From: Oscillospiraceae bacterium
GTDB taxonomy: Bacteria > Bacillota > Clostridia > Oscillospirales > Oscillospiraceae
Assembly: GCA_017435615.1 (NCBI GenBank)
Contig: JAFSET010000025.1
Span: forward strand, 1-51,514
Direction of reading: 5' to 3'
Length of the DNA: 51,514 nt
Each line of letters begins with the position of its first letter. Position 1 is the stretch's first letter. Positions 2,996 to 47,287 of this stretch are shown here, piece by piece. Made by a program: the position numbers and the translations under genes. The notes under the pieces were generated by a model. That model ran no database searches. It saw only the letters and a program-made list of their open reading frames with translations, and was not told where the DNA came from.

Positions 2996-5900
2996 TTACA
3001 CCGTTTTAGGTACGTAGATAATAAACGAAGCCAACAGCGCATCGATCTCGGAATCTTCCAAAGACGCTACAGGAATGTTAAAGGCTCTGGTATCGAAGCC
3101 ATCCCACCAGGTTCCATCCACAATATGCTGTTGGGCAGTGGATGTTGCACCTCTTGAACCATCACTGTTTTTTACTGTTCCGTCGATCCATCTTTCCAGA
3201 CGAATATTCCGGCCCTCAGTATTGAGAATGATACTGCCTACCGGCAGCGTATCCTCCGTAAAGGTCTGCACCGTGAAGAATTTCAAAGAGTTGCTGGCAG
3301 CCTGCGTCTGTGTAGCCGGATACAGGTAGGAGTTATAGAACGCTTTTTCCACAGAAAGGTCGACTTTCTCATAGGCACTCAAAGGTACATAGATCTTAAA
3401 GCCTGCTTCTGTTTCCTCCGCAGTGACATCCAAAGATGCAACGCGGATATTAAATGCCCGCTCCGTCCAATCGCCCCACCACGCATCATTGACCATCACA
3501 AACTCGGTTGTAACGGTGGCCGGTCTGGCTACACCAGCGCCATTGACCCATCCTTCAGGACGGTAATTGTAGCCTGCATTGTTGACGATCAATGTGCCAA
3601 CCGGAAGTTCTGCCTTGGAGAATACTTTGGTTGCATAGAAGGGCAGAGACGATGTAGATGCATACACCTTCTTAGGATCGCCGGAGGTATTTGTGGAATC
3701 GTACCATCCGGAAAACAGGTTAAGATCCAACTCGATGTAACAATCCTCCAGTGTGTACTGCGAATTGGTGACTGCATAAGGATTTGCCGCAGCATTTTTT
3801 GCGCTTTCGATACACAGTGCCATAACCTCTTCCGTCACACCTGCAGGGCGGTATGTCAAAGTGCTTGCATCCAGTCCGGTCAGGGCTTCTGCCCACGCGA
3901 TGCCGGCAATATATCTGCCAATATCATAGGACAGGTGGTAGCCGTCTCTTGTCAGGTGATCACCCAGATAAGAGGTTCTTGCGTTCTCAATGGCTGTGCC
4001 GGAGGCAATTACAAAATCAATATCTTCGTTGGTCAAAATCTTATTCTGCACAGCAGATACGATCGCCCGGTACATGGTAGCCTGATCATTGCTGTACTTG
4101 GCAAAATCCGCATGGGTGGAATTGCTCTGATAGGCCCAGGTCATATGCCACCCCAGCTTGGCTGCGGGACGCACTTGCTTTACACCGGCAATCAGCTCCG
4201 GCAGCACATCGTATGAATCCGCATCACCGCTGTAGCCACTGACCTGCTGAAACGTGATCACGTCCCATTGGTCACTTTCCAGCGCGGCCTTTATGGACCA
4301 CGCCTCTTTGGCTACCCAGTAGCCGTCCGTATTGACATAGTAGGTGTATGCAGCGTTGTTTTGCTGCATATTGCTGTAGTGTGTATTCAGGGAGCAACCG
4401 CCGATATACAGATTGCCCAGCTTGATTTTTTTAACACCCAGATCCTGCGCGATTTGATGCACATACTCCATGCCGTCTATGGAAAAGCTGTTGCCGATGG
4501 CCAGCACCTTCAGGATGTCATCCTCCACCTGTTCCCCGGCAAAACTCTGCAGGCTCAGGTCGAAGGAAACGCCCTCGTTCCAGGCCAAAAAGCCCATATT
4601 GCCGGAGGCGTACAGCTCATAGGTGCCACCCTTGGTCAGGTCCACAACAGCCAAAGCCGCTTCGCCCTGCTCCTGTCTTGCCAGGGTGTTCAGGTAGAGC
4701 GTGGCGCCCTCGACTTTCGCGTAAAAGCTGGTGCCGACCACATTGCCGTTATAGACGATGCCGCCCAGGTAATCCAGCTTAAGCTGACTGCCGTCGGTAT
4801 TGTATACATTATCCAGGTAGTACACCTGAATAAAGTTCTGGTCCGATACATAGTTGATCAGATAACCGTCAACACCGTTGTTGGCTCCGGCGGTGGCTCG
4901 GAAGAACACACCGCCGGTCGCAATGACACCGGAATTGTTGGCAGCCTGGAATACAAATTCGCAATCGCCGTAAACAGCGGTATTGTCCAGGGCATAGCTG
5001 TAGCCGCTGACACGGGCTGTATTGGCATCGGTTTTGGTCCAGCCGTCAGCCTGCAGCGCTGTGCGTGTTGCGGAATTCAGAAGATTGGAGACAAGCTGCT
5101 GTGCCGCATCCGGCTGTGTTTCCGCCTGTTCCACAGCCTCGCCGGCAAAATGCTTTAGCTGCAGATCATAGGAAACGCCGTTGTTCCATGCCAGCATACC
5201 CATATGACCGGAGTCGATCAGGTCAAACTGTCCGTTATAGGTCAGGTCCACCACCGTAAGGGGTGCCAGGCACGCCTGATTTCTTTCCACGGTGGAAAGG
5301 ATCAGCGTATCGCCCTCTACCTTAGCGTAGAACTGGGTGTCCAAGATACTGCCGTAGGCTCCGTAGTTGATACCGCCGATGTACTGCAGGGTATAGGTGC
5401 TGCCGTCGGTGTTATACACATTGTTTACATAGTAGACCTGCAGGTAGTTACCGGAGGATACATAGTTGATCAAATAGCCCAAAATACCGTTATTGTCAAG
5501 CTGCTTTGCCCGGAAGAAAATGCCGCCGGTGGCAATATTGCCGGTGTTGTTGGTGGCCTTGAAGACCATTTCCGTATCCGCGTACAAAGCGGTATTGTCC
5601 AGGGCATAGCTGAAGCCGCTTACATTGGCGGTATTGTCGTCTGTCTTGGTCCAGCCTTCCGCGTTGAGCTGGTCCCGTGTATCCGCGCCCAGCAGGTTCG
5701 CCACGATCTGAACGGACTTGTTGGCAATTGCCTCCAATGCCGCAGTCTCGGCAGAAATGTCGACAGACTTCAGCTCTGCCTCTGTGGTGCAGGCATTGAT
5801 CTTGGCAACGGCTGCCTCATAATGGGGCTTTGCCTGCTCCCAGTTTTCGGGGGTATAAGCGGCCTGGGAATAGATACCCAAAGAAGAAAGCTTTGCCGCC

Positions 5901-8900
5901 TTGGCCTCTGCCAGCACAGAAGCTGCCAGTTCTTCGTCAAGTTCAGGCTGATTTTCACCCCGGATGGCACTTCTGATCACATCCGCCATAAGCTGATAGC
6001 CGGCTGCGGAGGGATGCAGACCGTCAATAAACAATCCGGCGTCGGTGCTCAGAGGATCCGTTTTGTCGGTGCAGAACAGATACTCTGTCTCAGCGTAGTA
6101 CATCCAGTCGTAGCTGGCTGCCAGGTTGCGCATCAACGCATTGATCTGGGAAATGGCATCGGTAATGGTCGACCGGCTGGGACAGTGGCTGACGGAAACC
6201 AGCACCACTTCAAATTCAGGCAGCGCGGCCTTGATCTGCAGCAGCGCCTTTTCCATAGAGTCCACAACCGCCTTGGGCGTGGTACCGCCGGTCAGATCGT
6301 TGATGCCGATGTTGTAAATACCCAGCTTTGGCTCATAGGAGATCACTTCGTCCGCCAGCACCTCCCAATGCGCTGCCACAGAGCCGCCGATACCAATGTC
6401 GTCGATATCGGTATACTCCGGGAAGTAGGCCTTGTAATCCAGCCACATTTCGGTGTAGGAGTGGCCGAAGATCAGTGTTTCTGCCTTGCGCAGTGCCACA
6501 TTGTCCGTAACGGTCACATCCGTGATATCCGTGCCGGCATTGGCGGCATAGAAGCCAAAGTGGCTGCCGGTCAGGGGTGCCTCGTCCTCACAGACCGCGT
6601 AGCAGTTGACGGTGCCGAAGCGGTTGTAGTAGTAGCAGGCAACGGTATTGCCGTTTTTGACTACCTCCAGGCGGTTATACTTGGTGTAGTTGTGACCTGC
6701 GGACAGATAGCCTCTGTCCAGCACAGTCTGCACGCCGTCTTCCACCTTCACCAACTCCACGGTCTGATTGTTGCACAGGCGGAACAGGTAGTAATTTTGG
6801 CCCTCTGCGTCAGAGCCGAACACGATACCGGCCTGATACTTGCCGGCAGTGTTAAAGGAGGCTGCCAAAGTGCCGTTTTGGAAGGTGGCGCTGCTGTGCA
6901 GAGCCAGGGTATCGTTTTGGGTGGTCCGGATGCCGTTGCAGTAAGCAGAGTGATAAAGCTGCAGACCGGAGGTATCACCACTGTCAAAGCTGTAGGCGAT
7001 CTGCTTTTCACCGGCAGTCACGCAGAAGTTATCAAAGGAAACATCGTTATATTGGCTGCGCAGGCCCACCTGACCCTCTGCCAGGTCATAGCCGCCGGCA
7101 TAGGTGTAGGTAACCGATGCGCTCTTGGAGGGATCGCTGATCAAAGATACAGTCACTGTCAACTCGTTTCCCGCCACACAAACCTGCAGGTTCACAGGCT
7201 CTGCGGTATTATCGGTAAACAGGGCGGCCGCACCCTCGATCACAAACCGGCTGTACTCCTTCCACGCCGGGAAGCTGCCGATGACAATGTCCAAACGGTT
7301 GGCGCTGGCATCGAAGTGGGATTCCAGCATCACCACCGCCGCGTTGATGGCATCCTGAGGCGCGTGAGCATTGGCTGCGCCCAGATAGATACCGGAATTG
7401 AACTTGTTGTCTGTGCCGGGATAGATATCCACGGAAACGGTCTTGTCGCCGCCCAGGCCCTGGGTCAGGATCACTTTGCCTTCGCCGTTGCCCGCAGCAG
7501 CCAGCTTTCCGTCCTGCACGGCAATGCCGCTGCCGGTCACAGTGTCAAAGGCACCGGACACAGCATCATAAGAAACCGTCACATCTCCATCATCACCAAT
7601 GGCGCTGACATACCGCACAGCCGCTGCATGATAGCCGTACAGGGCGTTCAGCAGTGCCTTCAGGGAGGCGCTTCCGTTTTGGCTCATACGGATGATGTAA
7701 TTTAAGGGGCTGTAGGATACGCTTAAAGCTTCCTCGCCCTTGGTTGCCGTCAGGGTGATCAGCTCACTGTACTGCTGAGGATTGATACCGGCAACCTCTA
7801 CATAGTACATGCCGTCCTTTTGGACCGGCTCATAGCCGCCGAAGCTGACGCCTTCCACAGAGCCGGTGAAATAGAACCGCACCGCGATCTTATTCTTGAA
7901 TACCAGGGACGCGCCGTAGAACCGCAGGCCGCTGACACTGCCGCTTACAGACAGGCTGTCATACTCGGTGGGCAGTGCGGTTTCTGCCAGCTCATAGCCG
8001 GCATTGGCCAGGTCATCGGTATTCACATCAAAGTGAAGCTGTGCCTTCGCGCCGTAGTTCAGCATCCACTTGACCAGGGTCTTAGTCTTTTCCGGATAGT
8101 TCCCTTCCAGCAAAGCCTGCGCGTAGCTGCGCACGCTGTAGGTATTTTCCAGGGTCACAACGCCGCTGTTTACAAACCGGACCTGAATTTGCTCTGTCAT
8201 CTGCGCCGCCGCCAAATTCACGGTAAGGGTATACTTGCCGTTTTCATCCGCGGTCATAGCGCTCAGGTCATAGCTGACCGTCTCGCCGTTAAAGGTCACA
8301 TTTACAGTGGTTGCCTTGTCGGCCTCCACAACGAAATTCATTGCCAGGTCATCACTCAGGAAGACCTGCTGGCTCAGGGCCGCAACATACCGCTTTGCGG
8401 TGTACACGCCGTTTTCAGCCGTTACCACATAGGTCTTGCCGTTAGCCTGGGTCAGGCTTTCCACGCTGCCGGTAACCGCTGCGCTGCCGCCGTTTCCAAA
8501 AGAATCGGTGGCGGTGTCGATCAGCTTCAGGCTATAGCCCGCTTCTACCGTCACATTGGACAGCTCGCAGCCGGCCAGGTCGATGGTCACATCCTTGCTG
8601 ATGACAATTGCCTCGTCTGTGGACTGCAGAAGCTCCACGATCTGCCCATCGGCAGCAGCAACGGCTGCGCTGACGCTGGTGTAGCTTTCTGTGCCCACCA
8701 CTGCATAATCCTCGTGCTCCTGCTTGGGCAGAGTCAGGGTGAAGTTACTGTTTGCATCGTACATATCCCGGTCAGTGGAATAGTAGGACACATCGCACTG
8801 AGTGCCGTCCGCATTGAACCGCAGCAGGCCGATCATACCCACATGCTTATAGCCCTCGTTGCCGGTATCGGTGACCTGGGCATCCATCAGCATCTGATGG

Positions 8901-11701
8901 ACATCGTTGCCGTTGACACCCTTATCCGTTCTTCTGACCACGCTGGTATGCCATACGTGACCGGAGAAGGTCATAATGATATTTTCGTGCTTGCTGACAA
9001 AGTCATTCCACACATGAGGCTGATCCAGGTTGCCGTAGGAGCCCACATAGCTATGGGTGATCACGATCACCTGATGGTTGGGATGAGCTGCCACGACCTC
9101 GTTGGCCCACGCCAGCACATCGGCCTGGGGCACATACTCCAGGGCAATGACCATATACTGGTTGCCGTTTACCTCAAAGCTCTGCCACTGGTTGACACAG
9201 TTTTCTTCATCGAAGAAGCCGCAGCCTGTGGCATAGTTTTCAAACAGGCTTACAGGGAAGTACTCATTCATCAGGGTAAGCTGCTCACGCACACCGTAGC
9301 CCTGATCCCAACCGGAGTTGGTATCGTAGTCGTGGTTGCCGGGGGCGGCAATAAAGGGCAGATCCTCCGGCAGCAGCTCCCACGCTGCCTTGTTGTTCTC
9401 CCACTGGGTGATATTGCCGCAGTTGTCGGCCATATCGCCCACATTCATGACGATCTGAATGTTCTCTTTTTCCCGGTTGTCCGCGATCCACTGATACATA
9501 GCCATCAGCTTCTCGGGATAGTAATTGTTCAGGATCTGCTGGTCCGGGATCACCACCATGGAATAAGCACCGGGCTCATGGGTCTGGGTCTGCAGATCAA
9601 GCTGTGCATCATAAGGTGCAACAGAATTGCTGTTGCCGGACAGCTCCGCATACACGCCGTCCACCTGCTCCGCCAGGGGCGCGTTGAACAGCAGGCCCTC
9701 CCGGGGTGCTTCATACTGGGTCATCATGCTCTGGGCAACTTCTGCTGCGGTCAGGGCACGGTCCCACAGTCTGACATCGGCAATATGGCCGATAAACTTA
9801 TTCTTGGCATCGTCGGAGGATTCCAGGCTGCCGATGGCAAAGGTGTTGCCGGGAACGATGGAATCCGGAACGGTAATGGCTTCCAGTCCCGCATCGGTCC
9901 AGGTGCAGACCGCCTGGCCGTTGAGATAGCACACCACCGTATCGGCTGCCACATCACAGGTATAGGCCACATGGGTCCACTTGCCGGTGCGGATATCCGT
10001 ATCCACGTCAAAATTTCTGGTGGTGACCGTCAGGTCCGCGTTTTCCGTTTTGTAGCTCAGCCGCAGCTTGCCGCCGGCGGTCATCAGCATTGCCACGGAG
10101 GGCGCGCGGCTGGCGTTGCCCACAATGTAACCCACCGCACTGTCGTGGACGCCCTGGGGCGCATTGACCCAGGCTTCCACTGTGTAGGGAGCAGTTTCCA
10201 GGTCCTGCGTCAGCTTCCAGGGCCGCAGACTGCTCTGGCAGAACAAAGAGCCGTCGTTGACATAGACTGTCTGCTGCTCAGGAGCCGGCTGCTCCACAGG
10301 CTCTTTGTAGGTGATCACCAGGTTGTCGTAGCCCAGATCGATAAACTGGTTGCGCAGGCCGATCTGGCCCTGAAGCTGCTCTGCTTCCATTGTCCAGGTC
10401 TTCTGCACAAACCGATTGGGATTGTTTTGCAGGCTCAGCGTGGCGGTCATAGTGGCCTCGCCAAACTCCAGCTTCAGCGTCAGGGGCTGCTTCACACCGC
10501 CGGCATACAGGGCGTTGCGATTGCCGGTTTCGGAAACCAGCCGGGAGCCTGCTACTTCACCGGCCCAGCCCTGGGCAAACTTACCCAGCCACAGGTCGAT
10601 CCGGTTGGGCGCATCGTCCCAGCCGGAGAACATGGATTCCACCATGACCGCAATGGCGTCGGCCTTATCCTGATCTGCCAGCACATTCTTCGCGCCCACA
10701 TATACACCTGCGTTCATCAGGCCGGAGGGGCCGGGAATGATATCCACGGACATGGCTGCGATATTGGCCATATCCTCCGCAAAGATGGCCTTCATTTCGC
10801 CGTTTCCGCCGGTGGACTTGAGCATACCGTCAGCAACGGTAAAGCTGTGATTGCCGTTTGTATAGAAGATGAAATCCTCAGCCTGGGCAGCGTCAGAAAA
10901 ATCCCACAGCCTGGAATTTTCCGGCAGGGTCTGCTCGTAGGCTACCTGTATGTTATCAAAGCAGGCATCCGAAGCATTGACACGCAGGCCAAGCTGTCCT
11001 TCCAGTGCCGCGGAGTCCACCTCGTACATAAGCTGCAGATATTTATTGGGATTGCTCACCAGGCTTAAGGTCAGCAGCAAAACATCCTGACCAAAGTCCA
11101 GCTTCAGGTTCAGCGCCTGCTTGTTGCCGCCGCTGAACAGAGCATTGCTGTTGCCCGCCTCAGAAACTGTGCGGCTGAGCTCCGTCCAGCTCTGATTGAA
11201 CTGCCCCTGAATGATGTCGATACGGTTAGGCGCGTCGGTCCAGCCGGTAAAATTGGACTGGATCTGAAACACCATCGCGTCAATTCCATTGACCGCACTG
11301 CCGGCATTGGCTGCGCCAACGTACACACCGGCATTGATCTGACCGGATGCGCCCGGAATGATATCCACGGAAACAGAGCGCACATTGGAAGGCGTATTGG
11401 TCAAGATCGCCTTCATTTCTCCATCTGTGCCGTTGGGTACAAGCATACCGTCAGAAACCGTAAAGCTGCTTGTGGCCGATTGGTACAGAGCAAAGTCTGC
11501 CAGTTGATTTGCCGCCGCGAAGTCCCAAAGGGCGCTCCGGGAAACAGCAGGCTCCCCTGCGGTGACTACCTGAGTCTGTGTCGCGGCTTCCTCTGCTTCT
11601 GCCGCCGCCACAGGCATAACCGGAAGAAAGCTTAAAAGCATACTCAGTGCCAGGAACAATGCAAACACTTTACGGGCACTGATGGACCAACGGTTTTTCA
11701 T
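2996..11701 (-). CDS. Giant secreted phosphoesterase / double SGNH esterase
   Basis: 2901 aa with a signal peptide (1-34, ending near VAAA). Apparent order: two ~200-aa beta modules (about 58-255 and 262-465) of the type repeated in the next two genes; LamG-like domain (475-680); calcineurin-type metallophosphoesterase (705-990) with Asp756 in GDMAD, Asn789-His790 in GNHD and His915/His918 in GHVWH; the ~370-aa module shared with the 1804-aa protein (1003-1370); a third ~200-aa module (1375-1565); another beta sandwich (1568-1735); SGNH hydrolase 1 (1738-1925; Ser1748 in GHSY, Asn1801 in GIND, Asp1893/His1896 in DGLHPS); a helical linker; two tandem ~190-aa beta domains (2007-2395); a DUF4886-type SGNH domain (2397-2640; Ser2405 in GNSFS, Asp2586/His2589 in DGYHLS); and two ~115-aa C-terminal repeats. 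There is no wall anchor. Likely removes acyl and phosphate substituents from a glycan; substrates are unknown. The start overlaps the upstream stop as ATGA. Confidence 0.82.
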   Translation of the reverse strand: MKNRWSISARKVFALFLALSMLLSFLPVMPVAAAEAEEAATQTQVVTAGEPAVSRSALWDFAAANQLADFALYQSATSSFTVSDGMLVPNGTDGEMKAILTNTPSNVRSVSVDIIPGASGQINAGVYVGAANAGSAVNGIDAMVFQIQSNFTGWTDAPNRIDIIQGQFNQSWTELSRTVSEAGNSNALFSGGNKQALNLKLDFGQDVLLLTLSLVSNPNKYLQLMYEVDSAALEGQLGLRVNASDACFDNIQVAYEQTLPENSRLWDFSDAAQAEDFIFYTNGNHSFTVADGMLKSTGGNGEMKAIFAEDMANIAAMSVDIIPGPSGLMNAGVYVGAKNVLADQDKADAIAVMVESMFSGWDDAPNRIDLWLGKFAQGWAGEVAGSRLVSETGNRNALYAGGVKQPLTLKLEFGEATMTATLSLQNNPNRFVQKTWTMEAEQLQGQIGLRNQFIDLGYDNLVITYKEPVEQPAPEQQTVYVNDGSLFCQSSLRPWKLTQDLETAPYTVEAWVNAPQGVHDSAVGYIVGNASRAPSVAMLMTAGGKLRLSYKTENADLTVTTRNFDVDTDIRTGKWTHVAYTCDVAADTVVCYLNGQAVCTWTDAGLEAITVPDSIVPGNTFAIGSLESSDDAKNKFIGHIADVRLWDRALTAAEVAQSMMTQYEAPREGLLFNAPLAEQVDGVYAELSGNSNSVAPYDAQLDLQTQTHEPGAYSMVVIPDQQILNNYYPEKLMAMYQWIADNREKENIQIVMNVGDMADNCGNITQWENNKAAWELLPEDLPFIAAPGNHDYDTNSGWDQGYGVREQLTLMNEYFPVSLFENYATGCGFFDEENCVNQWQSFEVNGNQYMVIALEYVPQADVLAWANEVVAAHPNHQVIVITHSYVGSYGNLDQPHVWNDFVSKHENIIMTFSGHVWHTSVVRRTDKGVNGNDVHQMLMDAQVTDTGNEGYKHVGMIGLLRFNADGTQCDVSYYSTDRDMYDANSNFTLTLPKQEHEDYAVVGTESYTSVSAAVAAADGQIVELLQSTDEAIVISKDVTIDLAGCELSNVTVEAGYSLKLIDTATDSFGNGGSAAVTGSVESLTQANGKTYVVTAENGVYTAKRYVAALSQQVFLSDDLAMNFVVEADKATTVNVTFNGETVSYDLSAMTADENGKYTLTVNLAAAQMTEQIQVRFVNSGVVTLENTYSVRSYAQALLEGNYPEKTKTLVKWMLNYGAKAQLHFDVNTDDLANAGYELAETALPTEYDSLSVSGSVSGLRFYGASLVFKNKIAVRFYFTGSVEGVSFGGYEPVQKDGMYYVEVAGINPQQYSELITLTATKGEEALSVSYSPLNYIIRMSQNGSASLKALLNALYGYHAAAVRYVSAIGDDGDVTVSYDAVSGAFDTVTGSGIAVQDGKLAAAGNGEGKVILTQGLGGDKTVSVDIYPGTDNKFNSGIYLGAANAHAPQDAINAAVVMLESHFDASANRLDIVIGSFPAWKEYSRFVIEGAAALFTDNTAEPVNLQVCVAGNELTVTVSLISDPSKSASVTYTYAGGYDLAEGQVGLRSQYNDVSFDNFCVTAGEKQIAYSFDSGDTSGLQLYHSAYCNGIRTTQNDTLALHSSATFQNGTLAASFNTAGKYQAGIVFGSDAEGQNYYLFRLCNNQTVELVKVEDGVQTVLDRGYLSAGHNYTKYNRLEVVKNGNTVACYYYNRFGTVNCYAVCEDEAPLTGSHFGFYAANAGTDITDVTVTDNVALRKAETLIFGHSYTEMWLDYKAYFPEYTDIDDIGIGGSVAAHWEVLADEVISYEPKLGIYNIGINDLTGGTTPKAVVDSMEKALLQIKAALPEFEVVLVSVSHCPSRSTITDAISQINALMRNLAASYDWMYYAETEYLFCTDKTDPLSTDAGLFIDGLHPSAAGYQLMADVIRSAIRGENQPELDEELAASVLAEAKAAKLSSLGIYSQAAYTPENWEQAKPHYEAAVAKINACTTEAELKSVDISAETAALEAIANKSVQIVANLLGADTRDQLNAEGWTKTDDNTANVSGFSYALDNTALYADTEMVFKATNNTGNIATGGIFFRAKQLDNNGILGYLINYVSSGNYLQVYYVNNVYNTDGSTYTLQYIGGINYGAYGSILDTQFYAKVEGDTLILSTVERNQACLAPLTVVDLTYNGQFDLIDSGHMGMLAWNNGVSYDLQLKHFAGEAVEQAETQPDAAQQLVSNLLNSATRTALQADGWTKTDANTARVSGYSYALDNTAVYGDCEFVFQAANNSGVIATGGVFFRATAGANNGVDGYLINYVSDQNFIQVYYLDNVYNTDGSQLKLDYLGGIVYNGNVVGTSFYAKVEGATLYLNTLARQEQGEAALAVVDLTKGGTYELYASGNMGFLAWNEGVSFDLSLQSFAGEQVEDDILKVLAIGNSFSIDGMEYVHQIAQDLGVKKIKLGNLYIGGCSLNTHYSNMQQNNAAYTYYVNTDGYWVAKEAWSIKAALESDQWDVITFQQVSGYSGDADSYDVLPELIAGVKQVRPAAKLGWHMTWAYQSNSTHADFAKYSNDQATMYRAIVSAVQNKILTNEDIDFVIASGTAIENARTSYLGDHLTRDGYHLSYDIGRYIAGIAWAEALTGLDASTLTYRPAGVTEEVMALCIESAKNAAANPYAVTNSQYTLEDCYIELDLNLFSGWYDSTNTSGDPKKVYASTSSLPFYATKVFSKAELPVGTLIVNNAGYNYRPEGWVNGAGVARPATVTTEFVMVNDAWWGDWTERAFNIRVASLDVTAEETEAGFKIYVPLSAYEKVDLSVEKAFYNSYLYPATQTQAASNSLKFFTVQTFTEDTLPVGSIILNTEGRNIRLERWIDGTVKNSDGSRGATSTAQQHIVDGTWWDGFDTRAFNIPVASLEDSEIDALLASFIIYVPKTV

Positions 11702-14700: not shown

Positions 14701-16854
14701 ATCACTGTGATTGGAACGGATACCCACATTACCTAAAGAAATGTCCTGTCCCTCTGCGTAAATATATGTAGTCGTCACATAACGGGCAGGATCGCTGATC
14801 AACCGAACAGTGATGGTCAGTTCATTGCCGTTGATGGCTACGCTCAAGTTCACCGGTTCTTTCACGCCGCCGGTAAACAGATTATTTCCGATGCCTGTTT
14901 CGGAAACCGCTCTGTGCAGCTCCTGCCACTGGGGGAACTTGCCCACTACCAAATCCAAACGGTTGGGGGCATCCGGCCAGAAAGGCTCGTTGCCATGGGG
15001 GAAATCGGACTCAATGCCCACATACAGGGCATTTACCTGATCAATAGGATGGTCCGCACTTGTCACATCCAGGTACAGGCCGCCATTGATCCCCTTTGCA
15101 TTGGGATAAATATCCATGCTCACATAGCTGAAGCTGGCGTTGGTATCCTTATAGATAGCCTTAAACTCGCCCGCATCGCCTACAGGTACTAATTTTCCGT
15201 CCTGCACCGCAAATCCGCCATTTGACGAATGATAGAAGCTGAACTTTCCGCTGCTGTCCGTATTTTCAAAATCCACCAAATCCGTAGGCTCCAGGCTCAC
15301 ATCCGGCTCCGTGGGTTCTTCTGTGGTGGGTTCTTCTGTGGTGGGTTCTTCTGTGGTAGGTTCTTCCGTAGTGGGTTCCTCGGTGGTAGGTTCTTCTGTG
15401 GTAGGTTCCTCGGTAGTAGGTTCTTCGGTAGTGGGTTCTTCCGGGATCTGCTCTACCGTATACCGGACCGTAAAGTTATCGTAGGCCGCGTCATGGAAGG
15501 GGGAACGAATACCCACATCTCCAGCCGACAGATCTCCCGCGCCCTGGTACACATAGCTGAAGCTGACAGACTTGCCGGGATCCCGCAGCAGGCTCAAGGT
15601 AACATTCAGCCTGTTACCGTCGATCGCCACCTTCAGTTTGAGTGCCTCTTTCACACCACCACTGAACAGGTTGTTGCGATTGCCGGTTTCGGAAATCAGT
15701 CTGTAAATCTCAGTCCACCGGGGGAAGCTGCCTACAACCAGGTCGATCCGGTTGGGGGCATCCGACCAGCCACTGTGGTTCGAGTCCACATTGATGTTCA
15801 GAGCATCGATCTGATCCACCGGATTACCGGGGTTCTTGGCGTTGATATACAAACCGCCTACCAGTGTACCGGAGGTACCAGGATGAATATCCACGGTGAT
15901 CTCACGGATCTTTGCGCCCTCCGGCTTTTTGTAAATAGCCTTAAATTCGCCGCTAACACCGGAAGGTGTCAGCTTGCCGTTTGCCACGGCAAAACCGCCG
16001 CTGGAGGAGGTGTACAGGTCAAAACGATCTGCCGAAGCAGCAGCGTCAAAATCCACCGTTTCCGTCAGAGTAACGATATTTTGCTCCGGTGCTGCATGCT
16101 CATATTCTACAAGGAAATTGTCATAGCAAGCGTTATTAAACTGGGAGCGAATACCCACACTTCCGGTGGACAGATCGCCCGCGCCCTGATACACATAGGT
16201 GGAGGTGATCTTTTTACTGGGATCTCTGACCAGGCTGACGGTGCTGGTGAGCTGATTTCCATGGATGTCCACCTTCAGCAGAAGCGGCTCTTTTACGCCG
16301 CCGCTGAACAGGTTGTTGCCCGCACCGGTCTCCGAGATGATCCTTCCCAGTTCCTTCCACCCCGGGAAGCTGCCTGTGACAAGATCGATCCGGTTGGGCG
16401 CATCGGCCCAGCCGGTATGGTGGGCCTCCACGCCAACATACAGGCCATTCACCCGGTCCTGCCCATCCGCTATATCAGAAGCATTCAGGTAAAGGCCGCC
16501 AAAGATAGGCCCGTTACTGCCTACCGGGTGCAGCTCCACGCTGACGGATTTGATCTTCTTTCCGCTGCTTTTGTAGATAGCCTTGAACTCACCGGCGGTA
16601 CCGGTAGGAGTCAGCTTGCCGCTTTGCACCGCAAAGCCGCCGCTGGAGGAATGATACAAATCAAATTTTTCCGCATCCGCAGCGGTATCAAAGCCGATTT
16701 GCACTACACCTGTTTGGACTTCGTCTTTTTTGACGGCTTCGGCAGATAAAGCCGAAACCGGTGACGCGCCCAGGCTCAGCACCATAGACAGCGCCATCAA
16801 AAGGGACAGCCCTCTGCGCAAAATAGGTCTGCTTGTGTTGATCTTTTCTTTCAT
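11698..16854 (-). CDS. Wall-anchored protein with seven identical-type modules
   Basis: 1718 aa from the ATG at 16854, chosen because GGGAGGA lies just upstream and a signal peptide (about 1-36) follows directly. A longer frame begins at 16950 but has no such support. The protein is seven copies of one ~200-aa beta-rich module (about 56-252, 265-465, 526-729, 759-962, 996-1199, 1232-1434, 1454-1652). Signatures are GGFAV.GKL, GEFKAIYK, APNR.DLV.G.FP.W, SETG..N.LF, TVSL..DP and GIRS....AYDNF. Modules 2 and 3 are separated by a Pro/Thr/Glu linker of EEPTT repeats; shorter EEPTT-type linkers join the rest. The C-terminus carries TPDTGD, a hydrophobic helix and KKNK, which resembles a non-canonical sortase signal. 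No catalytic motif is seen. It may be a surface glycan-binding or scaffold protein. Confidence 0.8.
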   Translation of the reverse strand: MKEKINTSRPILRRGLSLLMALSMVLSLGASPVSALSAEAVKKDEVQTGVVQIGFDTAADAEKFDLYHSSSGGFAVQSGKLTPTGTAGEFKAIYKSSGKKIKSVSVELHPVGSNGPIFGGLYLNASDIADGQDRVNGLYVGVEAHHTGWADAPNRIDLVTGSFPGWKELGRIISETGAGNNLFSGGVKEPLLLKVDIHGNQLTSTVSLVRDPSKKITSTYVYQGAGDLSTGSVGIRSQFNNACYDNFLVEYEHAAPEQNIVTLTETVDFDAAASADRFDLYTSSSGGFAVANGKLTPSGVSGEFKAIYKKPEGAKIREITVDIHPGTSGTLVGGLYINAKNPGNPVDQIDALNINVDSNHSGWSDAPNRIDLVVGSFPRWTEIYRLISETGNRNNLFSGGVKEALKLKVAIDGNRLNVTLSLLRDPGKSVSFSYVYQGAGDLSAGDVGIRSPFHDAAYDNFTVRYTVEQIPEEPTTEEPTTEEPTTEEPTTEEPTTEEPTTEEPTTEEPTTEEPTEPDVSLEPTDLVDFENTDSSGKFSFYHSSNGGFAVQDGKLVPVGDAGEFKAIYKDTNASFSYVSMDIYPNAKGINGGLYLDVTSADHPIDQVNALYVGIESDFPHGNEPFWPDAPNRLDLVVGKFPQWQELHRAVSETGIGNNLFTGGVKEPVNLSVAINGNELTITVRLISDPARYVTTTYIYAEGQDISLGNVGIRSNHSDASYDNFAVIYTQAEQDKEDDTLPEEPTTEPTEPVTRPEPTDLVDFENTDSSGKFSFYHSSNGGFAVQDGKLVPAGEAGEFKAIYKDTNASFSYVSVDIYPGEKGINGGLYIDGVNAGHAIDEITGLYIGIESNFPHEGEAYWEDAPNRLDLVVGKFPQWQELHRAVSETGIGNNLFANGVKEPVNLSVAINGNELTITVRLISDPARYVTTTYIYAEGQDISLGNVGIRSAHCDAAYDNFAVIYEQVEQDKDPDDIIPEEPTTEPTEPVTRPAPTDTVDFENADSGEKFNLYHSSNGGFAVQDGKLVPSGEAGEFKAIYKDTNASFSYVSVDIYPGQDGIRGGLYLDVTDVDHPVDQANALYVGIESDFPHGEEPAWEDAPNRLDLVIGKFPQWIELHRVVSETGAGNSLFTGGVKEPVNLSVAMDGNELTVTVSLLSDPSRSVTTTYVYEDGQDMSLGNVGIRSYFCDAAYDDFAVVYEQAEQDKEDDTLPEEPTTTEPTEPVTRPEPTDVVDFDDALSREQFHFYHSSNGGFAVEDGKLVPAGEAGEFKAIYKDTNANFSYVSVDIYPGQDGIRGGLYLDVTDVGHGQDQITGLYVGIESDFPHGEEPAWEDAPNRLDLVIGKFPQWAELHRAVSETGAGNNLFTGGVKEPINLSVAVRGKKLTVTVSLLSDPSRYLTTTYVCADAKDLGLGNVGIRSQYCNAAYDNFFVVYEQVQEDKEQDILIPELEPTDVVDFGKKDDAQKFDFYHSSQGGFAVRDGKLMPVGEEGEFKAIYRDGGSTIQAVSVDIYPGESGQINSGIYIGTSTVEDGVDRIKGLVVMVESSFSGWDDAVNRIDLVVGRFPIWKELHRCTSETGNGNALFAGAKEPLNLSVFLDGNTLTVKLSLISNPEKFVTTTYTYNGATELPTHNVGLRSAFNDAAFDNFAVRTLEGGGSNDPEAPGSDGGNGTTTGGTGMTPDTGDAFRPELSLTLMLLSIAAIVALVWKKNKFISQEVSQ
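12555..15290. repeat. ~700-bp direct repeats within the anchored protein gene
   Basis: Modules 3-6 are near-copies at DNA level with a period of about 700 bp. For example, the stretch with GTAGTCGTCACATAACGGGC occurs at about 14066 and 14767, and a ~90-bp linker stretch with GGCTCAGGCCGTGTGACAGG recurs at about 13172 and 14588, two periods apart. Nucleotide identity this high points to recent duplication or gene conversion, so module number may vary between strains. Confidence 0.75.
15311..15449. repeat. 15-bp tandem repeat encoding the EEPTT linker
   Basis: About nine head-to-tail copies of a 15-bp unit (consensus GTGGGTTCTTCTGTG on the plus strand) encode EEPTT repeats on the minus strand between modules 2 and 3. 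The unit is a multiple of three, so copy-number changes would alter linker length without breaking the frame. Confidence 0.85.
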
Positions 16855-17040
16855 TGTGATTCCTCCCGGTAAATAAGTGGGAACTCGCTCCCGTTCTGAT
16901 ATCGTTTTTATATATGCAACACGGTATCTGCGCCGGTTTTGGGCAGACACTTATGGAACATTCAAAGTTATAAGCCGCAAAGACCTGTGGCTGCGGCATC
17001 CACCCGGCCAGGTGCCGGCAGATGATTGTTTAATTCCCCC

Positions 17041-17070
17041 TGTTCCTCCCGGGCTCCCCCGGGAGGAACA
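17041..17070. other. Perfect 13-bp hairpin between two giant genes
   Basis: TGTTCCTCCCGGG (17041-17053) pairs perfectly with 17058-17070 around a 4-base loop, eleven bases after the stop of the 1804-aa gene. Neither strand has a clear T run next to it, so it is more likely an RNA-stabilising or processing hairpin than a classic terminator. The rest of the 227-bp gap (16855-17081) shows no gene and no convincing promoter. Confidence 0.6.
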
Positions 17071-17081
17071 GAATATAAAAT

Positions 17082-20000
17082 TTATGCTTCGGGTTCGGTT
17101 TCGACCTGCTCTGCCATCAGAGCAAAATTCTTAACCTGCACACTGCCGTCCAACAGACGGATCTTCAGCGTATGGTTGCCTGCTGTCAGCGGAAGCTGAC
17201 CCAGTACAAGCTGTGTCATACCCGTTTCTTCAGAAGCGGGAACAGTGAATTCATAGATGGCTGCGCCGTCTACCACGATTTCCAGCTTTGCACCTGCATT
17301 AGCGGACATATAAGCAGACAGATCATATACGCCTTCAGCATTAGCGGAAATGGCATACTTGACCCAGTCGCCGGCTGTTGCCAGCTTCAGGTCATAGCTG
17401 ACAGTTGCTTCATCGTAAATGCTGCTTTCCTTTTCACCCTGACGGATGCCGTCGGTAGGCTGCGCATCTGCGAAGTAGAAACCACGGTTTTCGCCCTTGA
17501 GGTAGTGGATTGCCGGGAACGCACTGCCTGTCACCTTCACGGTATCAAAGTCGCTTGTGCCCAGCGCATCGTTGGAAAATGCTATATAGCCCCAGCTTGC
17601 AAGACCTCTTGCGCCGATCTTACCGGCAACGCCTGCATGCTCCACATCCAGCTTCCGCATCAAATCCATATACACCAGCAGACGGGATGCGCCCTGCTCG
17701 ATACGCACTGTATGCAGCACATCGGCAGACAGATTTTCAATAGTCTTGCTGCCCAGCACCTGGGTCTGACCGTTGGTAATTGCAGATGCGGTCAAGGTCT
17801 TGGTTGCATCGTTCCATTCGATCTGGCAGTAATTGTTTTCATTGACATAGCCAAAAAGCATCCGGCTGGTGCCGTCTTTTACGGGAGTGAAGTTAAATTC
17901 TGCAGTATAGACTTTTCCGGAAGCCACACCACTGAAGAACACTTCACCGGAAATGTTCATATTTTCTGTGCCCCAGGATTCAAAATCCGGGCGTTCAGGC
18001 ACAGGCATATCCCAATAGGTAGGACCGTTGGCCATAACACAAGCGCCATTCGTCACCAGCTTGTCCAGCATATAGCGGCGCTGAGGACCGTCAACACCCA
18101 CCAGATTATGATAAGCCGCATACCAGCTATCCAGGTTAGGACCCACCACATTGGAATTATGACCCAAACCACGGAAATTGTCCGGGCCGGCTGCCATAAT
18201 CAGAATATTGTCCTCAGGCTGAATGAAATCGCCCATAGGATCAGAACCGATCTGATAGGAGTAACCCACACGGTAATTATCCGCAGTTACCTTGTTGCCG
18301 GAGTAGGTCAGATACAGAATATCGCCTCTGCGGAACAGGCCAGGGCCTTCCACCCAACCGCCATTCATACTGGCAGTAAGCACCTTGTGGATATTGGTCT
18401 GGTTGGGGGGTGTCATAGTGCTTTGATCGATGGGTACAACGCGAATGCTCTTGCTCTTGGCATACAGGAAGAACAGATTGCCGTCATCGTCCAGCCACAA
18501 AGAACCGTCAATGCCGTATTCGAAATCCCCGGTAACAGCCTGGAAAGGACCGATGGGACTTTCGCTCTTGTAGATGTAGTGACCGGTGCCCTTATTGCCG
18601 GATTGGCACATATAGAACCAGCCATTATGGTAGATCACTTCGGGGGCGTAAGCCTGGGTGGCCTCTGCGGCTTCCAAAGCAAAACCCTTGTAGGTCCAGT
18701 TTACCAAATCATCGGATTCAAAGACTTTCACACCGGAGATGCCATTTTCCGCCACACCGGATGAAGGGTACATATAGTACTTTCCGTTATGGCGCAGCAC
18801 AAAAGGGTCGCCAATACCGTATTCACCACCTTCGGTGTAGGTATCTACACCCCACTGACCGATAATATCCTGACCGTTGCGGTAGGTCTGGGTTTGAGCA
18901 AAGGTGTATGTTTCCTCAATACTGTCAACAGAACCGGTGTAGGAATACCGGCTCAGGGTCATACCGGTATTGAAGCCGAACACGCCGGCAGCAGCAGCGC
19001 CGGTAATATTACCCTCGCTGCTTAAAACGCACACGCCGTTCACATAGAACCGGATCTCTGGCCCGTTCTTCAAAACGCCCAATGTCACCGCTGCGCCGGA
19101 AAGATCCATTTCCTCCACAGTGGCAACAACGGCGTTATCCCAATCAAATGCGCCATCTGCATACTGCACGCAGCCCACGGTATTGGCCTGCAGCGCTTCA
19201 TTCATCTGCACATAGAAGTACGCCCGGATGCCGTTTTCCTCCACATACATACCAAACTTGGGAGATTCTGCCCCAGCCTGGGCACTGTGGATCTGGAATT
19301 GACCTTCAAAATAGAACGGATCCTGGTTTAAACCGTTCACACCGGCGTGGGAATTGCCGTTTGCGCCCACCTGAATAACACCGGTGTTTGCGCCGGAATC
19401 GTTGCTCAGATCCACCTGGCCGTCAACCGGTCCGAAGAAAATATATTCGCTTACAAACCGCAATGCTGCCTCGTGGTAGCCGTACAATGCGTTCAGCAGT
19501 GCTTTCATCACGGCATTGCCCTTCTGGCTCATACGGATGATATAGTTCATCGGACTATAGGAGACAGTTAAGCTTTCTCCATCCTTTGTTGCGGTCAAAT
19601 CGATCAGATTGCTGTAATCCTGGGGATTAATACCGGCAACCTCTACATAGTGCATACCGCCCTTTTCCACCGTTTCATAATCGCCGAAGCTGACGCCATC
19701 CACAGAACCGGTGAAATAGAAACGCACAGCGATCTTGTTTTTAAATACCAAAGATGCACCGTAGAAGCTCATACCGCCGATATTGCCCTCCACAACCATT
19801 TCGGGGTGCTGCGCAGGAACAGTTGTATCTTCCAGCTCATAGCCGGCATTTGCCAAACGGTCTGTGTTCACCTCAAAATACTGCTGTGCCTTTGCACCGT
19901 ATTGGAGCATCCACTTCACCAGATTTTTGGTCTTTTCGGGGTAATTGCCGGAAAGTACGGCATCTGCATAGCCGCGGATCGTGTAGATCTTTTCCTGGGC

Positions 20001-22496
20001 AACCGTGCCGCCGTATACAAACTGAACGGTAATTTCCTCGGTCATCTGCGCAGCCGCAAGATATGCAGAAACTGTGTAGAAACCGTTTTCATCGGGGATC
20101 ATAGCGTTCAGATCATAGGAAACCGTTTCACCGGCTACGATTACATTGACTACTGTGCCGGGCTCTGCCTTTACAGGGAAGCGCATTGCCAGATCGTCAC
20201 CCAAAGAAACCTGCTGCATAATTTCGGTCACATAAGGACGAACTGTGTACACATTTTCTGCAGCGACGGACATATAAGCCTTGCCGTTTGCCACGCCGAT
20301 GCTGTCTACTGTGCCCATGCTGATTGCAGTGCCGTAAACTGTAGCGCTGCCACCGGCCTTGCCGGAATTTGTGGTGCTGTCAGCCAGCTTCAAAACGCTG
20401 CCTTCCGGCACAACCACATTGCTCATATGATAGCCTGCCAGATCAATTGTGGCGCTGCCTCGTACGATCACAGTTTCATTGCAATTGCCCAGCAAGGTCA
20501 CCGCATGCTCACCGGCCATCTGTACCGCCTGGTTGACCGTTGCATAACCCTGACCATTGACTGCTGCAACAGCATTTACGGTAAAGTTATCATAAGAAGC
20601 ATTGTTGTGATGACTGCGAATACCTACCTGTCCAACAGACAGATCCCGGTCCGCCACAAAGGTAGTGCTGATGTATCTGGAAGGATCGCTCAACAGGCTA
20701 ACCGTTGCTGTAACCGTATTGCCGCTGATATCTGCCCGCAACAGCAAGGGTTCCTTTACACCGCCGGAGAACAGATTGTTGCCCAGACCGGTCTCGGAAA
20801 TGGTACGGCTGTACTCGATCCAACCCGGGAAATTGCCCAGCACCAGGTCGATACGGTTGGGCGCATCTTCCCAGCCGGTAAAGTGGGATTCCACACCAAC
20901 ATACAAAGCATTGATGCTGTCCTGAGCATTGGTGGCATCAGAAGCACCGATGTACAGACCGCCATAGATAGGGCCGTCGGTAAACTGGGGATGCAGCTCC
21001 ATGCTGACAGAGTGGATCAGTTTGCCGTTTTCCTTATAAATTGCCTTGAACTCACCGGCATCACCGGTAGGAACCAGCTTGCCTTCTTCGGCTGCAAAGC
21101 CGCCGGCAGAGGTGGTATACAGATCAAAGGCATCGGTATTGTCAAAGCCGTTTACAGCAGCCTCCGCGCTGGGAGCGCAGTTGACCGCAAAGTTGTCGTA
21201 CATTGCGTTGTTGTAATGGCTGCGGATACCCACCTGCCCCATAGACAGATCCCGGTCAGCAATATAAGTTGTGCTAAAGCTGATGCTGGGATCCCGCACC
21301 AGGCTCACAGTCACAACAACCATATTACCGGTAATGTCTGCCTTCAACAGTAAGGGCTCCTTGATACCGCCGGAGAACAGGTTGTTGCCCAGACCGGTTT
21401 CAGAAACCGTCCGGCTGTACTCGATCCAATTGGGGAAATTACCAAAGACCAGGTCAATACGGTTGGCCGCATCATCCCAGCCGGTAAAGTGGGATTCAAT
21501 GCCAATATACAAGGCATTGATGTTATCCTGTGCATTGCCGGCGTCGGAAGCGCCGATATACAGACCGCCGTAGATGGGGCCGTCACTGTTCACGGGATGC
21601 AGCTCCACGCTGACAGAATGGACCTTGCCGGTGCCGTTATAAATTGCCTTGAACTCACCGGCATCACCGGTGGGTACCAGCTTGCCGTTTGCCGCTGTAA
21701 AGCCACCGGCAGAGGTGGAATACAGGCTGAAATCGTCTGCATTTTCAAACTTTGCCATATGACCGGGCATATCCTGCACAGCCTCTTCCACATATTCCAC
21801 TGTAAAATTATCGTACATTGCGTTGTTGTACTGGCTGCGGATACCCACATCGCCCAAGGTCAGATCTGTGCCCTCCGGCAGGGTGTAGGTGGTGGTCACC
21901 TGCCTGCCGGGGTTGCTGACCAGGCTCACGGTAACTTCCATAACATTGCCGTCCAGCCGGGCGTGCAGCCGCAGAGGTTCTTTGTTGCCGGAGAACAGGT
22001 TGTTGCCCAAACCGGTTTCAGAAACGAAACGGGCGCCTACTTCGCCGCCCCAGCCCTGGGTAAACTGACCCAGGGTGATGTCCACGCGGTTAATGGCATC
22101 ATCCCAGCCCGCAAAGTTGGACTCGATGCCCAAATACAGCGCGTCGATCTTATCCTGGCCATTTGCAGCATTGGCGGCATTGATATACAGACCGCCGTAC
22201 ACGCCGTCATTGCCTACAGGATGGATCTCCACGCTGACAGCGCGGATCGCCCGTCCATCGTCTTTATACATTGCCTTGAATTCACCGGCATCACCGGCAG
22301 GAACAAGCTTGCCATCCTGCACGGCGAAACCGCCGGCGGAGGTGGAATACAGGTCGAAGCTTGCTGCCGCTTCGGCTGTACTGAAGTCTACTGCCGCTGC
22401 AGAAGCACCGGCGGCAAACACCTGCAAAGACAACAGGGAAACCAGCATTGTCAATGCAAGCAGGACAGATATCCATCTGCCATTTGAGATTTTCAT
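17082..22496 (-). CDS. Secreted multimodular GH43 glycoside hydrolase
   Basis: 1804 aa with a signal peptide (1-29, ending QVFAAG). Apparent order: three copies of the ~200-aa beta module (33-236, 246-440, 449-643); the ~370-aa module shared with the 2901-aa protein (645-1020), marked by LVKWMLQYGAKAQ, FKNKIAVRFYFTGS and LLNALYGYH; a beta sandwich (1022-1190); GH43 propeller (about 1220-1503) with Asp1230 in GIGDPFV, Asp1330 in GIDGS and Glu1383 in VEGPG; a beta sandwich (1508-1655); and a CBM6-like domain (1660-1795). The half from GH43 onward is paralogous to the next upstream gene. No lipobox or wall-sorting signal is present. It may be held at the surface through the shared modules. It should release arabinose, xylose or galactose side groups outside the cell. 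ATG at 22496 follows GGAGG closely. Confidence 0.85.
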   Translation of the reverse strand: MKISNGRWISVLLALTMLVSLLSLQVFAAGASAAAVDFSTAEAAASFDLYSTSAGGFAVQDGKLVPAGDAGEFKAMYKDDGRAIRAVSVEIHPVGNDGVYGGLYINAANAANGQDKIDALYLGIESNFAGWDDAINRVDITLGQFTQGWGGEVGARFVSETGLGNNLFSGNKEPLRLHARLDGNVMEVTVSLVSNPGRQVTTTYTLPEGTDLTLGDVGIRSQYNNAMYDNFTVEYVEEAVQDMPGHMAKFENADDFSLYSTSAGGFTAANGKLVPTGDAGEFKAIYNGTGKVHSVSVELHPVNSDGPIYGGLYIGASDAGNAQDNINALYIGIESHFTGWDDAANRIDLVFGNFPNWIEYSRTVSETGLGNNLFSGGIKEPLLLKADITGNMVVVTVSLVRDPSISFSTTYIADRDLSMGQVGIRSHYNNAMYDNFAVNCAPSAEAAVNGFDNTDAFDLYTTSAGGFAAEEGKLVPTGDAGEFKAIYKENGKLIHSVSMELHPQFTDGPIYGGLYIGASDATNAQDSINALYVGVESHFTGWEDAPNRIDLVLGNFPGWIEYSRTISETGLGNNLFSGGVKEPLLLRADISGNTVTATVSLLSDPSRYISTTFVADRDLSVGQVGIRSHHNNASYDNFTVNAVAAVNGQGYATVNQAVQMAGEHAVTLLGNCNETVIVRGSATIDLAGYHMSNVVVPEGSVLKLADSTTNSGKAGGSATVYGTAISMGTVDSIGVANGKAYMSVAAENVYTVRPYVTEIMQQVSLGDDLAMRFPVKAEPGTVVNVIVAGETVSYDLNAMIPDENGFYTVSAYLAAAQMTEEITVQFVYGGTVAQEKIYTIRGYADAVLSGNYPEKTKNLVKWMLQYGAKAQQYFEVNTDRLANAGYELEDTTVPAQHPEMVVEGNIGGMSFYGASLVFKNKIAVRFYFTGSVDGVSFGDYETVEKGGMHYVEVAGINPQDYSNLIDLTATKDGESLTVSYSPMNYIIRMSQKGNAVMKALLNALYGYHEAALRFVSEYIFFGPVDGQVDLSNDSGANTGVIQVGANGNSHAGVNGLNQDPFYFEGQFQIHSAQAGAESPKFGMYVEENGIRAYFYVQMNEALQANTVGCVQYADGAFDWDNAVVATVEEMDLSGAAVTLGVLKNGPEIRFYVNGVCVLSSEGNITGAAAAGVFGFNTGMTLSRYSYTGSVDSIEETYTFAQTQTYRNGQDIIGQWGVDTYTEGGEYGIGDPFVLRHNGKYYMYPSSGVAENGISGVKVFESDDLVNWTYKGFALEAAEATQAYAPEVIYHNGWFYMCQSGNKGTGHYIYKSESPIGPFQAVTGDFEYGIDGSLWLDDDGNLFFLYAKSKSIRVVPIDQSTMTPPNQTNIHKVLTASMNGGWVEGPGLFRRGDILYLTYSGNKVTADNYRVGYSYQIGSDPMGDFIQPEDNILIMAAGPDNFRGLGHNSNVVGPNLDSWYAAYHNLVGVDGPQRRYMLDKLVTNGACVMANGPTYWDMPVPERPDFESWGTENMNISGEVFFSGVASGKVYTAEFNFTPVKDGTSRMLFGYVNENNYCQIEWNDATKTLTASAITNGQTQVLGSKTIENLSADVLHTVRIEQGASRLLVYMDLMRKLDVEHAGVAGKIGARGLASWGYIAFSNDALGTSDFDTVKVTGSAFPAIHYLKGENRGFYFADAQPTDGIRQGEKESSIYDEATVSYDLKLATAGDWVKYAISANAEGVYDLSAYMSANAGAKLEIVVDGAAIYEFTVPASEETGMTQLVLGQLPLTAGNHTLKIRLLDGSVQVKNFALMAEQVETEPEA

Positions 22497-28262: not shown

Positions 28263-28271
28263 CACGCCTCC

Positions 28272-29177: not shown

Positions 29178-29198
29178 TTTCGTCACCCCTGTTTTTGT

Positions 29199-30557: not shown

Positions 30558-30577
30558 TTTGTATTCCTCCTTATATA

Positions 30578-32317: not shown

Positions 32318-32318
32318 G

Positions 32319-33263: not shown

Positions 33264-33284
33264 AATCACCCTCCTTTTGGATTG

Positions 33285-36663: not shown

Positions 36664-36666
36664 TGC

Positions 36667-36843
36667 TTATTCCTCCTCATATTCCGCCTGAAGCATCTTA
36701 GCCTCAGCGTCTGTGATCTCACGCCAGTTTTCCGGACTGTCCGCCGCGCCGAGAAAAACCTCCCTGCCAAAGGACCTTCCGTTGTACAACATCATTCCCT
36801 CCGCGGCTGTTAATTTCCGCAGCTCAATGGTTTCCTGCTTCAT
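36667..36843 (-). CDS. Small phage protein of unknown function
   Basis: 58 aa from ATG 36843, chosen because AAGGAG lies 9 bases upstream (another ATG at 36849 is possible). Sequence includes ELRKLTAAEGMMLYNG and an acidic tail ending EYEEE. No family recognised. Placed between tail appendage and endolysin genes, where XkdX-like small tail proteins are often found in other phages. Confidence 0.6.
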   Translation of the reverse strand: MKQETIELRKLTAAEGMMLYNGRSFGREVFLGAADSPENWREITDAEAKMLQAEYEEE

Positions 36844-36856
36844 GCACATTCTCTCC

Positions 36857-38472: not shown

Positions 38473-38476
38473 ATGC

Positions 38477-40594: not shown

Positions 40595-40643
40595 AATTTC
40601 TCCTTATTCCAGTTTCATGAATCCGCGAAACAAATAATTCCAA

Positions 40644-40913: not shown

Positions 40914-40944
40914 TGAAATTTGCTTAAGCCGTTACGATTGCTCG

Positions 40945-42621: not shown

Positions 42622-42633
42622 TTCCATGCCTCC

Positions 42634-45813: not shown

Positions 45814-45834
45814 TTAACTTCCTTTCCCACAAAG

Positions 45835-46522: not shown

Positions 46523-46528
46523 TTTACA

Positions 46529-46945: not shown

Positions 46946-46946
46946 C

Positions 46947-47279: not shown

Positions 47280-47287
47280 AAGCCCAC

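What the first reader, a model, noticed from the sequence alone, without database searches (positions are those of the whole stretch)
2996..22496. One ~200-aa module in 13 copies across three adjacent surface proteins
The same beta-rich module (GGFAV.GKL ... APNR.DLV ... SETG..N.LF ... GIRS....YDNF) occurs three times in the 2901-aa protein, seven times in the 1718-aa anchored protein and three times in the 1804-aa GH43 protein. Only the seven-copy protein has a wall anchor; the other two carry enzymes. This invites a model in which the modules bind either one shared glycan or each other, so that a repeat-built anchored protein gathers secreted enzymes without cohesins or dockerins. Such a non-cellulosomal assembly would be new.
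Basis: partly seen in the sequence, partly recalled or inferred. Interest (0 to 1): 0.8.

Follow-up and report, generated by a model that had tools for sequence, protein, structure and literature searches.

The report
CBM66-like lectin modules on fibre-degrading enzymes
A bacterium related to gut species carries thirteen copies of one sugar-binding-type protein module in three neighbouring secreted proteins, which most likely lets enzymes and a probable cell-surface protein hold on to the same polysaccharide; this resembles a strategy known from a rumen bacterium, and a new kind of enzyme scaffold has not been shown.

The parts
17082..22496 (-). 1804-aa secreted GH43 enzyme with three modules right after the signal-peptide-like stretch
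21786..22403 (-). module copy 1 of the GH43 protein (residues 32-237)
21171..21764 (-). module copy 2 of the GH43 protein (residues 245-442)
20565..21170 (-). module copy 3 of the GH43 protein (residues 443-644)
18057..18809 (-). GH43 catalytic domain (residues 1230-1480)
   Evidence: Pfam PF04616, E 1.6e-34
11698..16854 (-). repeat-only secreted protein, seven modules on mostly E/P/T-rich linkers, no catalytic domain found; 1718 aa from the ATG at 16854 (1750 aa if the GTG at 16950 is used)
16096..16710 (-). module copy 1 of the repeat-only protein
15454..16065 (-). module copy 2 of the repeat-only protein
14665..15285 (-). module copy 3 of the repeat-only protein
   Evidence: lineage-specific amplification with copies 4-6
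13963..14583 (-). module copy 4 of the repeat-only protein (sequence whose fold was predicted)
13258..13878 (-). module copy 5 of the repeat-only protein
12553..13173 (-). module copy 6 of the repeat-only protein
11899..12504 (-). module copy 7 of the repeat-only protein, sister of the last copy of the G139 repeat-only protein
11701..11826 (-). putative sorting signal: PDTGD, hydrophobic stretch, KKNK
   Evidence: motif and hydropathy; not listed by Pfam Gram_pos_anchor
2996..11701 (-). 2901-aa secreted multi-domain protein with three modules; its start overlaps the stop of the repeat-only gene
10931..11536 (-). module copy 1 of the 2901-aa protein (clade I)
10301..10915 (-). module copy 2 of the 2901-aa protein (clade I)
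7007..7582 (-). module copy 3 of the 2901-aa protein (clade II)
9734..10207 (-). Laminin_G_3 domain, residues 499-656
8954..9511 (-). calcineurin-like phosphoesterase domain, residues 731-916
5990..6466 (-). GDSL esterase domain, residues 1746-1904
3791..4510 (-). DUF4886 domain, residues 2398-2637
19377..20213 (-). second shared domain (about 255 folded residues), here in the GH43 protein; 37 places in this genome; not matched in the repeat-only protein
7565..8368 (-). the same second shared domain in the 2901-aa protein
22515..24977 (-). GH43 + CBM6-like + ConA-like (PF06439) protein, conserved neighbour
24990..27407 (-). protein with four CBM9_1 stretches, conserved neighbour
27417..33269 (-). 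two permeases, solute-binding protein, GH2, helix-turn-helix regulator: upstream part of the operon, conserved in G032
319..2926 (-). GH2 (1223-2926) and GH43 (319-1230) downstream

Best explanation
The module is a glycan-binding lectin domain of the concanavalin A-like fold, a distant relative of CBM66. Enzymes of a glycan-degrading operon carry copies, tightly packed where tandem, in front of their catalytic domains. The repeat-only protein presents seven copies on flexible linkers, probably at the cell wall. All copies keep the same putative binding residues, so they should bind the same sugar motif, most likely on the polysaccharide that the operon degrades. Enzymes and cell then share one substrate particle through polyvalent sugar binding, with no protein-protein docking needed. 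Shown: copies, fold prediction, remote homology, gene-order conservation, low dN/dS. Inferred: sugar binding, the ligand, surface anchoring, co-localisation.
Against: No ligand is known and no binding was measured. Direct profile searches of the PDB sequences do not list CBM66 up to E 10. A ConA-like domain in the neighbouring 820-aa protein is reached only at 20% over 54 columns, and that domain itself found no CBM66 entry up to E 1. The bridge domain carries the Pfam name of an enzyme family, 3-keto-disaccharide hydrolase, and the fold is known to occur in enzymes (general knowledge). Many carriers outside the operon are phosphoesterase/LamG or GDSL proteins with no obvious polysaccharide theme, which fits a retention role as well as a substrate role.
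Confidence: 0.62

Rival explanations
1. The module is a retention module that binds the bacterium's own cell-wall or capsular glycan, so that enzymes stay on the cell, as reported for CBM37 of R. albus. The repeat-only protein would then cross-link wall glycan.
For: First full copy starts at residues 16-91 in 22 of 24 proteins whatever the catalytic domain; carriers range over GH43, GDSL, DUF4886, phosphoesterase and a rhamnosidase; lineage-restricted, 3 of 136 same-genus genomes; of 17 carriers with a complete C-terminus, the 16 other than the seven-copy protein show no sorting signal of their own. R. albus precedent in PMC4081043 and PMC4300822 (passages).
Against: The conserved pair sits in a sugar-uptake operon; a seven-copy protein with its own putative wall signal would not need wall-glycan binding.
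Confidence: 0.22
2. Modules bind each other, and the repeat-only protein is a protein scaffold that collects the enzymes.
For: A repeat-only protein beside a module-bearing GH43 enzyme in 3 of 3 genomes (in one it is a 224-aa fragment at a contig end, so 'repeat-only' is unproven there); copy number amplified separately in two lineages; no cohesin found in the genome.
Against: Fold and remote homology point to a sugar binder; the repeat-only orthologue in G139 has no sorting signal. No interface prediction was made.
Confidence: 0.08
3. The module is itself an enzyme of the concanavalin A-like fold (for example a lyase or a 3-keto-disaccharide hydrolase), present in many copies.
For: Invariant K, Y, N, R, D, W, E, R; 5 of 48 copies give weak hits to 3keto-disac_hyd, best E 0.0053; the G811 bridge domain is a member of that Pfam family above its cut-off.
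Against: That best hit among the copies is far from a family-level match; seven catalytic copies in a row on linkers would be unusual; the best structural match is a binding module.
Confidence: 0.05

Closest known systems
CBM66 (Bacillus subtilis levanase module; CsCBM66 of a Cohnella xanthanase)
   Same: Concanavalin A-like sandwich; top structural match; reachable by sequence through one intermediate; CBM66 modules are reported on GH43 and GH32 enzymes among others (PMC11002231, passages read).
   Different: About 205 rather than about 165 residues, 12-14% identity over the structural alignment, not found by direct sequence search; tandem arrays and a repeat-only protein here; ligand unknown.
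CBM37 system of Ruminococcus albus
   Same: Taxon-restricted module in many copies, single or tandem, on enzymes of many kinds and on non-catalytic proteins; cohesin-poor genomes with dockerins; proposed substitute for a cellulosome (PMC4081043, PMC4300822, passages read).
   Different: A relation in sequence or fold was not tested. Here the module is mostly N-terminal, there are 2 dockerin matches rather than dozens, and one repeat-only protein has a putative wall signal.
Cellulosome (scaffoldin, cohesin, dockerin)
   Same: One repeat-built non-catalytic protein encoded beside enzymes.
   Different: No cohesin in the genome as held, no dockerin in the three proteins; the same module is on both partners.
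Gram-positive polysaccharide utilisation operon
   Same: Regulator, solute-binding protein, permeases, GH2, GH43, CBM proteins in one strand order.
   Different: It includes module-repeat proteins of an unnamed family.

Membership tests
CBM66 | concanavalin A-like beta-sandwich fold | tested here: met
CBM66 | direct sequence similarity to a characterised member | tested here: not met
   profiles A1 and A3 do not list the CBM66 chains up to E 10; only an indirect link through L097. So filed as CBM66-related, not as CBM66
CBM66 | attached to carbohydrate-active enzymes | tested here: met
   GH43 and rhamnosidase carriers
CBM66 | binds a glycan (fructan ends, or xanthan) | not testable with these tools
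   needs binding assays
3-keto-disaccharide hydrolase (PF06439) | family-level Pfam match | tested here: not met
   5 of 48 copies at E up to 1, best E 0.0053; in the three window proteins it is not listed at E up to 1
Cellulosome | cohesin in a scaffoldin | tested here: not met
   0 matches at E 0.1 in the genome as held, 76.6% complete
Cellulosome | dockerin in the enzymes concerned | tested here: not met
   none in the three proteins; 2 elsewhere in the genome
CBM37-type retention system | taxon-restricted module on many enzymes and on non-catalytic proteins | tested here: met
   3 of 136 same-genus genomes; 24 proteins
CBM37-type retention system | sequence or fold of CBM37 | not tested
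   no CBM37 sequence or structure was compared
CBM37-type retention system | binds the producer's own cell-wall carbohydrate | not testable with these tools
   needs cell-binding assays
Sortase-anchored surface protein | PxTG-like motif, hydrophobic stretch, positive tail | tested here: met
   seven-copy protein only, of 17 complete C-termini
Sortase-anchored surface protein | recognised by the Gram_pos_anchor profile | tested here: not met
   no match on this contig up to E 0.1
Sortase-anchored surface protein | sortase in the genome | tested here: met
   3 matches

The most novel reading that the evidence does not exclude
The repeat-only protein is a scaffold that works by sharing a ligand: the same lectin module is on a multivalent cell-surface protein and on the enzymes, so a soluble polysaccharide, rather than a dockerin, bridges them into a cell-bound enzyme cluster that dissolves as the polysaccharide is consumed.
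Probability: 0.17. Interest if true: 0.7.

Novelty: new variant of a known kind. Interest (0 to 1): 0.42.

Why it matters
If the shared-ligand reading holds, it gives a simple route by which a fibre-degrading gut bacterium can keep enzymes and cell on the same substrate without cellulosome parts, and it defines a module family, without a Pfam or NCBIfam match, with 48 natural copies ready for binding tests. If the module proves unrelated to CBM37 (not tested here), it would also show that a CBM37-like strategy arose more than once.

Tried and rejected
Pfam and NCBIfam searches of the three proteins and Pfam scans of the 48 copies gave no family for the module; short matches to DUF4179, fn3_6, End_N_terminal and others lie below cut-off and scatter over the repeats. 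PDB sequence searches with both profiles gave only chance-level hits, mostly eIF3b. PDB searches with three ConA-like stretches of the window gave no CBM66. IMG/VR viral contigs: 41 pattern hits, none confirmed. Family sample: 1 of 400 genomes, the window's own (the sample did not return G032 or G139). Order sample: 2 of 394, own plus G811 with two partial weak matches. The scan of named species genomes uses short patterns and found 2 genomes, so it is no proof of absence elsewhere.

A frame-shifted anchor in the G139 repeat-only orthologue was looked for and not seen in three frames. The glycan was not identified: PDB relatives of the GH43 and GH2 proteins are annotated endo-xylanase, xylosidase/arabinofuranosidase, beta-glucuronidase and beta-galactofuranosidase among others, which does not settle it. 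Module pairs were not modelled; the two prediction jobs went to the module and to the second domain. The positions of the invariant residues in the model could not be inspected because coordinates are not returned.

Full report
OBSERVATION. The three genes are complete, on the minus strand, and adjacent. A profile built from the copies recovers seven, three and three full copies and no others in these proteins. Pairwise identity is 35-86%; 24 of 217 alignment columns are invariant in the 13. Copies in the GH43 protein, and the first two in the 2901-aa protein, are separated by 3 to 7 residues by profile bounds; those of the seven-copy protein by linkers of 10 to 56 residues, mostly rich in Glu, Pro and Thr. 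The 1718-aa length corresponds to the ATG at 16854.

WIDER SET. The window's genome holds two further full copies in two other large proteins and one weak copy. Of 136 same-genus genomes, 3 have the module, the window's own included: G000 with 16 matches, G032 with 13, G139 with 23. Contig lengths of G139 (C26 49152, C17 24103) and G032 (C63 37828) equal those of the named records found: Oscillospiraceae MAGs RGIG7458 (water buffalo colon, by its title) and SIG476 (source not in the title). None of the 40 same-genus genomes that are at least 90% complete and at most 5% contaminated has it. The three carriers are incomplete (about 77, 82 and 71%). I extracted 48 full copies from 24 proteins: 15 in 5 of G000, 11 in 6 of G032, 22 in 13 of G139; shorter or weaker matches were left out. 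In 22 of 24 the first full copy starts at residue 16-91; the exceptions are a rhamnosidase/GDSL protein (1188) and a phosphoesterase protein (966); several of the 24 run off their contig or fetched stretch. Partner domains by Pfam, in 23 of the 24 (all but a 224-aa fragment) plus one protein (L056) with only a weak divergent copy: GH43, an alpha-L-rhamnosidase, GDSL, DUF4886, and calcineurin-like phosphoesterase, mostly with one to four LamG domains. The two repeat-only proteins have no catalytic match.

CONSERVED SITE. In 48 of 48 copies K42, Y71, N108, R109, D111, W120, E129 and R190 (numbering of copy 4) are invariant, beside G30, L32, P61, F117, L136 and G188. This fits one shared ligand, or a shared catalytic site; I could not see where they lie in the model.

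EVOLUTION. A tree of the 48 copies, rooted at the midpoint, splits them into clade I (16 rows: N-terminal copies of phosphoesterase/LamG proteins, and copies 1 and 2 of the 2901-aa type) and clade II (32 rows: repeat-only, GH43, copy 3 of the 2901-aa type, others). Copies 3-6 of the seven-copy protein group together, and copies 2-3 of the G139 four-copy protein group together as their sister, so each array grew within its own lineage. The last copies of both proteins are sisters. dN/dS among copies 3-6 is 0.09-0.16 (three of the six pairs have dS above 1.6, so these values are rough). The array length is thus plastic while the copies appear to be under purifying selection.

NEIGHBOURHOOD. From regulator to repeat-only gene the gene order is the same in the window and in G032 (identities 72-87% for the seven neighbours from regulator to GH43-CBM6, 66% over 771 residues for the module-bearing GH43), where the repeat-only gene runs off the contig after 224 residues. 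In G139 the CBM9, GH43-CBM6, GH43 and repeat-only genes keep order, with a phosphoesterase/module gene inserted; its upstream part was not fetched. The 2901-aa type is on another contig in G139 (C80). In G032 its module-bearing N-terminal part runs off the edge of C58, and a 1044-aa piece 73% identical to the window protein starts C63, about 34 kb from the repeat-only gene; these may be one gene split between contigs. So only the GH43 + repeat-only pair is a conserved neighbourhood, not the trio. Transport genes and GH2/GH43 enzymes mark a glycan utilisation operon; its substrate is not settled.

ANCHOR. The seven-copy protein ends in PDTGD, a hydrophobic stretch and KKNK; of 17 proteins with a complete C-terminus it alone looks anchored. 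Three sortase matches are present, but the anchor profile does not list this tail. The G139 orthologue (956 aa, four copies) ends without such a signal, in frame or out of frame. Surface display is therefore likely in the window's species and unproven in general.

MECHANISM. I think most likely that the modules are polyvalent sugar binders with one common ligand (0.62, with the substrate polysaccharide as ligand; 0.22 for own-wall glycan as in CBM37). Direct module-module docking is 0.08.

PRECEDENT. R. albus strains have 51, 77 and 102 copies of a module, CBM37, reported as unique to the species, on many enzymes and on non-catalytic proteins, in tandem in some, reported to attach enzymes to cell-wall carbohydrate, in genomes with at most one cohesin that still encode 58-90 dockerin proteins (PMC4081043 and PMC4300822, passages read). 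The window's genome has 0 cohesins and 2 dockerin matches. So the general idea is known; the module and the repeat-only partner are the new parts. My paper searches were aimed at CBM66, CBM37 and surface attachment; none was a search for this module by name, since it has none, so I make no claim that it is unpublished.

Mended on recheck: the source of SIG476, the position of the 2901-aa type in G032, the length of the CBM66 bridge match, the Pfam coverage of carriers (now) and the wording on the second domain.

Noticed in passing
window 19377-20213 and 7565-8368; loci L067-L096: A second domain without a clear Pfam family (about 255 residues, predicted as two repeats of an Ig-like sandwich plus two helices) occurs at 37 places in this genome, mostly in large reading frames and in several printed cases ending at the stop codon; 28 of 136 same-genus genomes have it, four of them with 19 matches, which seems to be the number scored. 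It has no clear structural relative. Its breadth resembles a dockerin-like or attachment tag.
   Followed up: partly
L073, L074, L076, L082, L085, L092, L095: Seven matches of the second domain report one or two in-frame stops inside the match; in the cases of these that were printed (L076, L082) the stop lies at the end of the domain, so some may simply be C-terminal domains whose match runs past the gene end.
   Followed up: partly
window 3791-4510 (2901-aa protein) and L053:8666-12361: DUF4886 occurs together with a GDSL esterase in two module-bearing proteins of different genomes, hinting at a joint esterase function.
   Followed up: no
L044:4654-12753, L047:11772-16877, L050, L051, L052, L055, L057, L058: A family of very large proteins joins an N-terminal module, one to four LamG domains and a calcineurin-like phosphoesterase; substrate unknown.
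   Followed up: no
window about 35851-51071: Phage-type genes: CHAP/PG-binding lysin-like, DUF859, Gp15 and scaffold matches, weaker capsid and portal matches: a prophage or its remnant at the end of the contig.
   Followed up: no
window 24990-27407: An 805-aa protein with four CBM9_1 stretches, next to the permease genes, conserved in G032 and G139; perhaps the operon's other surface glycan binder.
   Followed up: no
L044 and L045 (G032 contig C63): One 37.8-kb contig carries at least four module-bearing genes plus the operon, so the module genes are clustered there beyond the window's trio.
   Followed up: no
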